In this document: positions 16,591 through 17,862 of the stretch, piece by piece
Layout of the letters: each line of letters begins with the position of its first letter
How positions within the stretch are numbered: the stretch's first letter is position 1
From: Chloroflexota bacterium
Lineage (GTDB): Bacteria > Chloroflexota > UBA4733
Assembly (NCBI GenBank): GCA_023381555.1
Contig: JAMCRV010000087.1
Location: 1-47,526 of the forward strand
DNA length: 47,526 bases
Reading direction: 5' to 3'
Notes under the pieces: generated by a model
Told to the model about the DNA's origin: nothing
Seen by the model: only the letters and a program-made list of their open reading frames with translations
The model's database searches: none
Translations under genes and position numbers: made by a program

Positions 16591-16700
16591 TGGGAGCTCC
16601 TCTGCTCACTCGGCCATCAACTTACGGAAACAGAGGGTAGCGCACGTGCGGTGAAGGCCACTCCCGTCAGTGGTATCTCCACCGCACGTACCCTTCCTCG

Positions 16701-16868
16701 CTAAGAGGAAGGAGTAGGGGTTGCATTAGCGGCTTCAGCCGCCTCGAGCTCCTTCTGTCGCCGCCGAACGAGGTAGTCATCGACAACGAGGTAGGCTATT
16801 GCGGCACCGACACTCAGCAACGTTCCAGCGCCGACGGCCATGAGAAACCACTGAATGACCTTACCCAT
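16701..16868 (-). CDS. 55-aa small single-pass membrane protein
   Basis: Manual translation MGKVIQWFLMAVGAGTLLSVGAAIAYLVVDDYLVRRRQKELEAAEAANATPTPSS*; below the ORF-track size cutoff; TM plus charged helix. Confidence 0.6.
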   Translation of the reverse strand: MGKVIQWFLMAVGAGTLLSVGAAIAYLVVDDYLVRRRQKELEAAEAANATPTPSS

Positions 16869-16947: not shown

Positions 16948-16976
16948 TTGACAGCGCCTAGCCACCGTGGTATAAA
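16948..16976 (+). promoter_or_regulatory. sigma70-type promoter: TTGACA - 17 bp - TATAAA
   Basis: TTGACA at 16948-16953, spacer gcgcctagccaccgtgg, TATAAA at 16971-16976. Confidence 0.8.
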
Positions 16977-16982
16977 TGTATA

Positions 16983-17258
16983 GGTAGCGGGTGACCAGCT
17001 ACCAAGTAGTTCTAGAGGCTGGAGGTAGTTCTTTGAGGCAACGCAAGGAACCCCGGTCAGCTTTGGGAGTCTGGCAAGTTGACCGATGAGGCCCTCGCCG
17101 CGAGTGGTGGTGCAGGGTCGGGACAACCCCGGGTAGCACCCTGAAAGTTTGATTCAGAGGGAGGAGTTTTTACTCCTCTAGGTATGAGACTGTTCAAAGT
17201 CCCTAAGGGTGGGCGCCGGTAAATGTAAAGGCGGGAAGCATACGCTTCCCGCCTTTTT
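16983..17258 (+). ncRNA. candidate structured non-coding RNA of about 275 nt, class not recognised
   Basis: Strong promoter upstream, strong intrinsic terminator at the end, no convincing ORF, and several perfect or near-perfect hairpins between (GGTAGC/GCTACC; GGTCAGCTT/AAGTTGACC; GAGGAGT/ACTCCTC). Confidence 0.6.
17227..17258 (+). terminator. Rho-independent terminator, 13-bp perfect stem and U-tract; stem also A-flanked for use on the other strand
   Basis: AAAGGCGGGAAGC-ATAC-GCTTCCCGCCTTTTT. Confidence 0.92.
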
Positions 17259-17268
17259 CCGTTAGCAG

Positions 17269-17313
17269 TGTTCTCGGCGGCCATATAGTGATACAGTGTG
17301 GCCGCCGAGAACA
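17269..17313. repeat. 15-bp perfect inverted repeat, probable terminator-like hairpin of the 182-aa gene
   Basis: TGTTCTCGGCGGCCA - 15 nt - TGGCCGCCGAGAACA, directly adjacent to the stop codon at 17314-17316. Confidence 0.8.
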
Positions 17314-17862
17314 TTAGTGCACAGGTTCAGAGCCAACAGTTCCAGCAGATTCTGGGGAAGTGGGCTGTTCTGACAGCTCCGGGCCAAGAGAGTCTGCGGG
17401 AGCGACAATCTCCTCATCCATGTCAACTTCGGGGTATAGCTTGGCAATTTCGTCAGGAAGCCGGTCAGGGTCCACAAACTTTAGTCGATACACCGGATCA
17501 CTCGCCAACGGGTACAGCGGCTCGATGATCTCGACCCATCCGTCGTCAATCCCACGAGCAATAGCCCGCGTCACCGTGAATACGAAAATCGAGTACGGTG
17601 TACTCTTCGGAGCTGTGGCCTGATAAATCCGCTCCCCCATACCGTTTGCGGTCCAGAGCATCTCGAGGACGTGCATAGGATCAGGCCGAATGATGTCCTT
17701 ACGCCACTTCTTCGTCTCGTACCACTGATCCAAGAGCGAATTGAACCGATACCACTTGCCAAGTGGATGATCACAAGATGGACAGGTCAACGACGCCACA
17801 GAACCTTGGACGTTGACCCTTTGCCCGCATCGCGGACAGGTAAGCGCCGAGAGCATTTTCAA
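17314..17862 (-). CDS. hypothetical protein with N-terminal zinc ribbon
   Basis: MKMLSALTCPRCGQRVNVQGSVASLTCPSCDHPLGKWYRFNSLLDQWYETKKWRKD...; two CxxC pairs. Confidence 0.8.
   Translation of the reverse strand: MKMLSALTCPRCGQRVNVQGSVASLTCPSCDHPLGKWYRFNSLLDQWYETKKWRKDIIRPDPMHVLEMLWTANGMGERIYQATAPKSTPYSIFVFTVTRAIARGIDDGWVEIIEPLYPLASDPVYRLKFVDPDRLPDEIAKLYPEVDMDEEIVAPADSLGPELSEQPTSPESAGTVGSEPVH

What the first reader, a model, noticed from the sequence alone, without database searches (positions are those of the whole stretch)
16948..17258. Candidate unrecognised ~275-nt structured RNA with its own promoter and terminator
A near-consensus promoter (TTGACA-N17-TATAAA) is followed by about 275 nt with no good ORF, ending in a 13-bp perfect intrinsic terminator. 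Hairpins within: GGTAGC-GGGTGACCA-GCTACC, GGTCAGCTT-TGGGAGTCTGGC-AAGTTGACC, GAGGAGT-TTTT-ACTCCTC. GGCTGG/CCGGTC is an alternative pairing that competes with the second hairpin, so two conformations are possible. It ends before a convergent gene, so it is not a leader of a downstream + strand gene. I checked by eye for RNase P (GAGGAAAGUCC), SRP (GGAAGGAAGCAG), tmRNA and 6S hallmarks and did not find them.
Basis: partly seen in the sequence, partly recalled or inferred. Interest (0 to 1): 0.75.

Follow-up and report, generated by a model that had tools for sequence, protein, structure and literature searches.

The report
Standalone RNA encoding a tiny peptide
The suspected non-coding RNA is really a short, self-contained transcript that carries a conserved 18-amino-acid peptide (ending in GVWQVDR) inside a folded RNA; it belongs to an apparently undescribed family found across many Chloroflexota bacteria, and some relatives carry the same peptide-plus-hairpin module directly in front of genes for exported proteins.

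Summary
The promoter, hairpins and terminator are really there. The transcription unit (about 16983-17258, +) is conserved at the same locus in both other held genomes of its class. "No good ORF" is wrong. A Shine-Dalgarno (17021-17025) precedes an 18-codon ORF (17033-17089, TTG start; LRQRKEPRSALGVWQVDR*), and a hairpin (H1) starts right after the stop.

A covariance model, then a DNA pattern, found dozens of relatives, almost all in Chloroflexota (mostly Dehalococcoidia). Most share promoter, SD, 14-20 aa ORF ending GVWQVDx, H1, a long-range helix with covariation, and a terminator. A model of the downstream RNA domain alone found 76 places in 70 of 151 genomes of one order. All 60 places read had the peptide upstream, with variation concentrated in third codon positions. 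The RNA has no Rfam match and is neither tmRNA nor RNase P. Downstream genes differ and are often convergent, so it is standalone. In a few genera the same uORF+hairpin sits directly upstream of genes for predicted exported proteins.

Best reading: a standalone peptide-coding structured RNA that probably works through ribosome pausing on GVWQVD at H1, perhaps acting in trans like rnTrpL/peTrpL. The family is firm. The mechanism is inference. No expression data exist.

The parts
16948..16976 (+). Promoter: TTGACA (16948-16953), 17-nt spacer, TATAAA (16971-16976)
   Evidence: Sequence. Kept in G001 (TTGACA-N18-TATACC) and G002 (TTGACG-N18-TATCGT) (by eye). TTGAC found upstream in 57 of 65 family members, 6.7 expected by shuffle.
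16983..17003 (+). 5' hairpin GGTAGC/GCTACC near the predicted transcript start
   Evidence: fold; arms unchanged in G001, a different hairpin in G002.
17021..17025 (+). Shine-Dalgarno GGAGG, 7 nt before the TTG start
   Evidence: Sequence; a GGAGG-type SD precedes the ORF in relatives.
17028..17051 (+). Hairpin GTTCTTTG/CAAGGAAC that contains the start codon
   Evidence: fold; stem kept in G001 and in altered form in G002.
17033..17089 (+). Short ORF, 18 codons plus TGA: (M)RQRKEPRSALGVWQVDR*
   Evidence: changes own/G001 by codon position 4/1/8; relatives.
17066..17083 (+). Codons for the conserved motif GVWQVD
17090..17119 (+). Hairpin H1, starting directly after the stop codon
   Evidence: Fold -20.5 kcal/mol; H1 covaries in 70 aligned sequences.
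17137..17141 (+). 5' arm (CACCC) of the proposed long-range helix closing the 3' domain
   Evidence: By eye only in the window type. The equivalent helix in the Dehalococcoidia type covaries strongly.
17160..17179 (+). Hairpin GAGGAGT/ACTCCTC inside the 3' domain
   Evidence: G001 has a different sequence forming the same hairpin.
17207..17211 (+). 3' arm (GGGTG) of the proposed long-range helix
   Evidence: By eye; not in the minimum-energy fold of the window RNA.
17227..17258 (+). Intrinsic terminator, 13-bp stem, loop ATAC, T run
   Evidence: Sequence; stem replaced by other stable stems in G001 and G002; terminator-like site in 51 of 65 members, 2.0 in shuffles.

Best explanation
Shown: the element is a standalone transcription unit (promoter to intrinsic terminator, about 275 nt) that encodes a short peptide under selection, followed at the stop codon by hairpin H1 and a folded 3' domain. 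It is one of a large family confined, as far as found, to Chloroflexota. Inferred: the peptide works while still in the ribosome. Translation of ...GVWQVD brings the ribosome to the foot of H1, where nascent chain and hairpin together slow or arrest it. That state decides whether H1 and the 3' domain fold. In a few genera the same peptide+hairpin unit is used in cis, directly upstream of exported-protein genes. In the window and in most genomes it sits in its own terminated RNA, which would then act in trans (on such mRNAs, or on a factor they share) or report ribosome state. Confidence by step: standalone family of structured RNA 0.95; the ORF is translated and its peptide selected 0.9; ribosome pausing as the mechanism about 0.35; trans action related to protein export about 0.2.
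For: Conserved at the same locus in both other genomes of the class. R1 finds relatives in other families. A pattern scan of genome contigs gives 71 loci, nearly all Chloroflexota. The downstream-domain model R2, which contains no ORF sequence, hits 76 places in 70 of 151 genomes; all 60 places read carry an SD and a related short ORF (57 by script, three by eye). Motif variants: GVWQVD 24, GVRQVD 10 (Arg by AGG, AGA, CGG, CGC), RVWQVD 6 and others; mean entropy by codon position 0.53/0.30/1.18. Helix A: 91.6% paired, 8 of 14 pairs with double changes, 0 of 500 shuffles. H1: 91.5% paired, 0 of 500 shuffles. Promoter and terminator enriched. Next downstream gene is same-strand in 28 and opposite in 32 members, with unrelated functions. 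Cis copies: 21 of 23 scored downstream proteins have a signal-peptide-like start, against 51 of 140 background ORFs. The conserved residues lie at the C-terminal end of a 14-20 aa peptide that would still be inside the exit tunnel, and H1 starts about 2-10 nt after the Asp codon, where a ribosome on that codon and the folded hairpin would collide.
Against: No expression, ribosome profiling or toeprint data. The stop position is not strictly kept: some members have TGG and stop 3-5 codons later, others run on further. GVWLFP, GVWFFP and GRWNFP variants show that the exact residues can change. Standalone copies have no downstream gene to regulate, so the trans role is a guess. The cis copies come from only a few genera and are not independent. 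The signal-peptide test is crude, and its background includes neighbouring exported proteins.
Confidence: 0.45

Rival explanations
1. A plain microprotein gene: the 14-20 aa peptide is the product and acts after release; the hairpins and terminator only stabilise the short mRNA.
For: Peptide under strong selection; own promoter and terminator; no consistent downstream gene.
Against: The 3' domain covaries over about 100 nt, more than a stabilising 3' end needs. The same peptide+hairpin unit is reused as a leader in front of other genes.
Confidence: 0.27
2. A dual-function sRNA: the 3' domain base-pairs with target mRNAs or binds a protein, and the ORF is a second or controlling function.
For: Standalone, structured, terminator-ended RNA with no fixed neighbour. 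rnTrpL/peTrpL of Sinorhizobium meliloti is a precedent for a terminated leader RNA whose RNA and peptide both act in trans (PMC7298713).
Against: No target or binding partner was looked for or found; the peptide motif is the part best conserved across families.
Confidence: 0.2
3. A leader whose terminator is conditional, controlling whichever gene follows.
For: The uORF, hairpin and terminator order resembles attenuators; some members have a same-strand gene 200-300 nt downstream.
Against: The next gene is on the opposite strand in 32 of 60 members and in the window; same-strand genes are unrelated (rpe, rhomboid, DUF72, cysS, MerR-like).
Confidence: 0.04
4. A divergent housekeeping RNA (tmRNA, RNase P, 6S or SRP) missed by Rfam.
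For: RNase P and 6S models find nothing in the three genomes of the class; tmRNA also carries a short ORF.
Against: A tmRNA match is found in 24 and an RNase P match in 19 of 25 genomes screened because they carry the new RNA or its peptide motif (21 and 12 above the cut-off). SD and start codon are present and the 3' end is a terminator, not a tRNA-like end. The class genomes are only 57-81% complete. SRP was not tested across genomes.
Confidence: 0.02

Closest known systems
rnTrpL / peTrpL of Sinorhizobium meliloti (terminated trp leader RNA and its 14-aa peptide acting in trans; PMC7298713)
   Same: A short terminator-ended RNA encoding a 14-20 aa peptide with Trp, with a possible trans role for RNA and peptide.
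   Different: rnTrpL is the attenuated product of a cis leader of trpE(G). The present RNA has its own promoter and no downstream partner gene, carries a conserved folded 3' domain, and usually has one Trp codon in the motif, replaced by Arg in some members.
Arrest or leader peptides such as TnaC, SecM and Erm leaders (general knowledge; TnaC in PMC8429421, SecM in PMC10951299, both seen only as search results)
   Same: Short peptide with conserved residues near the C-terminal end, and RNA structure at the ribosome's leading edge; cis copies sit upstream of genes.
   Different: The motif is unlike the known ones as recalled; no arrest shown; most copies have no downstream gene; cis copies precede exported-protein genes rather than a Sec component.
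tmRNA (RF00023)
   Same: Structured RNA that contains a short ORF ended within or next to a hairpin.
   Different: No tRNA-like ends; has SD and start codon; tmRNA matches occur separately in 24 of 25 of the genomes screened.
uORF and sORF motif candidates of the Breaker laboratory screen of 50 genomes (PMC11109978)
   Same: Intergenic motif with SD, start and stop codons in a conserved RNA.
   Different: No Chloroflexota uORF or sORF motif is described in the passages found; the Dehalococcoides motif there (rdhA) lies upstream of reductive dehalogenases.

Membership tests
Any Rfam 15 family | Score above the family's gathering cut-off | tested here: not met
   Window, 15 R1 loci and 18 further loci: only tRNA and unrelated riboswitches; weak miRNA-type hits to the terminator and neighbouring hairpins are chance.
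tmRNA | Match to RF00023 | tested here: not met
   No match of the RNA itself; separate tmRNA matches in 24 of 25 genomes, 21 over the cut-off.
RNase P RNA | Match to RF00010 or RF00011 | tested here: not met
   No match of the RNA itself; RF00010 matches in 19 of 25 genomes screened, 12 over the cut-off.
6S RNA | Match to RF00013; long rod with central bubble | tested here: not met
   No match in the class; the window fold is a series of local hairpins, not a rod.
Peptide-coding short ORF | SD, start, stop, and substitutions concentrated in third codon positions | tested here: met
   Arg variants use four different codons.
Cis-acting uORF or attenuator leader | Consistent downstream gene on the same strand | tested here: not met
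   Standalone copies: 28 same strand, 32 opposite, unrelated genes. A minority of other copies are cis leaders.
Ribosome arrest peptide | Sequence-dependent ribosome stalling | not testable with these tools
   Needs toeprinting or ribosome profiling.
Trans-acting sRNA | Effect on mRNAs or proteins encoded elsewhere | not tested
   No target search was made.
Structured RNA | Conserved stems with compensatory changes | tested here: met
   Helix A and H1; in the window type only H1, the hairpin at 17160-17179 and the terminator are supported by eye.

The most novel reading that the evidence does not exclude
A phylum-wide regulatory unit in which a ribosome-sensing peptide plus hairpin controls exported-protein genes in cis, while a separate, terminator-ended RNA carrying the same unit works in trans as a global sensor or decoy for the same ribosome-dependent signal.
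Probability: 0.2. Interest if true: 0.9.

Novelty: new variant of a known kind. Interest (0 to 1): 0.7.

Why it matters
It is an unannotated gene family present in nearly half of the sampled genomes of one large Chloroflexota order and scattered through other families of the phylum, missed because the peptide is 14-20 aa and the RNA is not in Rfam. It joins three things usually seen apart: a selected micro-peptide, a covarying RNA fold and a standalone terminated transcript. The same module also occurs as a leader of exported-protein genes. This gives a directly testable case of whether a leader-type peptide module can work from its own RNA.

Tried and rejected
1) Divergent RNase P, 6S or tmRNA: the class lacked RNase P and 6S matches, but tmRNA and RNase P matches occur separately in most genomes screened. 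2) 16S rRNA helix 31 mimicry of the hairpin CUUUG-AUGCAACG-CAAAG in G001: not kept outside the class and explained by codons of the ORF; left as chance. 3) Minus-strand 5' leader of the divergent small protein: the minus strand also folds well, but ORF, SD, promoter and terminator all point to the plus strand. 5) Several R1 hits (L015, L024, L026, L028) lack the motif and look like ordinary coding sequence. 6) L069 (Atopomonas) and L099 (Cytophagaceae) are chance pattern hits; L091 is labelled Bathyarchaeota and is probably a binning error. 7) Many pattern hits are GVWQVD inside ordinary long proteins. 8) Paper searches for the motif and for Chloroflexota RNA motifs found nothing. 9) A viral-contig scan failed twice.

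Full report
What was claimed and what is there. The window carries, on the plus strand, TTGACA-N17-TATAAA (16948-16976), several hairpins, and a 13-bp intrinsic terminator (17227-17256) before a convergent gene (17314-17862, minus). Rfam gives nothing at curated thresholds, and with E up to 10 only trivial hits to the terminator and neighbouring hairpins. Folding is 4.6 sd better than shuffles, but the reverse strand is nearly as good.

Conservation. The same intergenic region occurs in both other held genomes of the class: G001 (same genus, 70% identity over 259 nt) and G002 (same family). Promoter, core and terminator are kept, the terminator through different stable stems.

The core is a coding region. 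A model of the core (R1) finds more relatives elsewhere in the phylum. Reading them showed the conserved block to be a short ORF behind a strong SD, ending in GVWQVDx-stop. In the window: TTG AGG CAA CGC AAG GAA CCC CGG TCA GCT TTG GGA GTC TGG CAA GTT GAC CGA TGA (17033-17089). Between window and G001 the changes fall 4/1/8 on codon positions 1/2/3.

How widespread. A degenerate pattern over one genome per species gave 71 loci, nearly all titled Chloroflexi, Chloroflexota or Dehalococcoidia, with two evident chance hits. Among 65 members, TTGAC lies upstream in 57 (6.7 expected) and a terminator-like hairpin downstream in 51 (2.0 expected) (simple shuffles). In one order, 55 of 151 genomes match the core motif, and the reversed control pattern gives none in the genomes listed.

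Unbiased test of the peptide. Because the pattern fixes the motif, a second model (R2) was built from the RNA downstream of H1 only and searched over the same 151 genomes: 76 places in 70 genomes. This set includes the training members. All 60 places fetched carry an SD and a related ORF upstream (57 by script; L217, L251 and L258 by eye). The motif varies (GVWQVD, GVRQVD, RVWQVD, EVWQVD, EVRQVD, GVWLFP, GVNQAD and others), but with mean entropies of 0.53, 0.30 and 1.18 bits at codon positions 1, 2 and 3; Arg is written with four codons. The script accepted only motif-like peptides, so the few exceptions were read separately. This is strong evidence that the amino-acid sequence is selected.

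The RNA is also structured. Helix A of the Dehalococcoidia type (13 contiguous pairs plus one, enclosing two further hairpins) has 91.6% of cells paired and 8 pairs with double changes; no shuffle reaches its pairing or covariation score, and sliding by one column halves the pairing. H1, starting at the stop codon, shows the same, though its first pairs were fixed by the pattern. In the window type the corresponding long-range helix is shorter and only suggested by eye (CACCC/GGGTG here; GCCCC/GGGGC, TACCC/GGGTA and others elsewhere). It is not in the minimum-energy fold.

Standalone, and a cis form. The first sizeable downstream gene is on the same strand in 28 and on the opposite strand in 32 members. 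Same-strand examples are unrelated: ribulose-phosphate epimerase, rhomboid, DUF72, cysteinyl-tRNA synthetase, MerR-like. In a few genera, multiple copies of the same uORF+hairpin lie directly upstream of other genes without the 3' domain or terminator. There, 21 of 23 scored downstream proteins have a signal-peptide-like start, against 51 of 140 background ORFs from the same loci (Fisher p about 1e-6; crude predictor, related genomes). G459 and G465 have cis copies with GVWQVD and a standalone copy with a changed motif (GVRQVD, GVNQAD).

What it is not. Among 25 genomes chosen because they carry the RNA or its motif, 24 have a tmRNA match and 19 an RNase P match elsewhere (21 and 12 above the cut-off). 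The absence of RNase P and 6S matches in the window's own class probably reflects incomplete genomes and divergent sequences. No Rfam family covers the wider set.

Mechanism. Shown: a conserved peptide, a conserved hairpin at its end, a folded 3' domain, and a self-contained transcript. Inferred: the peptide acts in the ribosome. It is too short to leave the exit tunnel (about 30 residues, general knowledge), its conserved residues are at the C-terminal end, and H1 begins about 2-10 nt beyond the Asp codon, where a ribosome on that codon and the folded hairpin exclude each other. The stop codon itself is not required: in some members it is TGG, with a stop 3-5 codons later. Why a module used in cis in some genomes sits in its own RNA in most is open. 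rnTrpL/peTrpL shows that a terminated leader RNA and its peptide can act in trans (PMC7298713).

Novelty. No paper in the library holds GVWQVD, and searches for Chloroflexota RNA motifs found no description. The family appears undescribed; the library lacks most subscription journals.

Noticed in passing
window 17270-17312: A long near-perfect inverted repeat (TGTTCTCGGCGGCCA...TGGCCGCCGAGAACA) lies between the RNA's terminator and the convergent gene's stop; it may be that gene's 3' hairpin. No clear T run.
   Followed up: no
window 16633-16699: A strong hairpin (GGGTAGCGCACGTGCGGTG...CCACCGCACGTACCC) lies between the small membrane-protein gene and the dehydrogenase gene, possibly a terminator.
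   Followed up: no
window about 16700-16868 (-) and 17314-17862 (-): The neighbours, a small membrane protein (MGK..QW...) and a zinc-ribbon-like protein, are kept in genomes of the class; the second has no Pfam family above cut-off, and no homologue in 38 other genomes of the phylum.
   Followed up: partly
L039 and window 17028-17051: The hairpin over the start codon (loop AUGCAACG in G001) resembles 16S rRNA helix 31; most likely chance.
   Followed up: partly
L138-L140, L189, L190: In G342 and relatives, tandem genes for predicted exported proteins are separated by GVWQVD uORFs; some upstream genes end in GWNDRASSIS.
   Followed up: partly
L231, L234, L239, L251: Some standalone copies end in GVWLFPS, GVWFFPN, GRWNFPS or GVWLFPI instead of GVWQVDx: a second motif class in the same RNA.
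   Followed up: no
L143:100-182: One member repeats the motif inside the same ORF (LGAWQVDQAFLGVWQVD*).
   Followed up: no
f7 genomes (single-contig 1.4-2.1 Mb): This family of the same order shows no motif hits although its genomes are near complete, so the RNA seems dispensable in some lineages.
   Followed up: no
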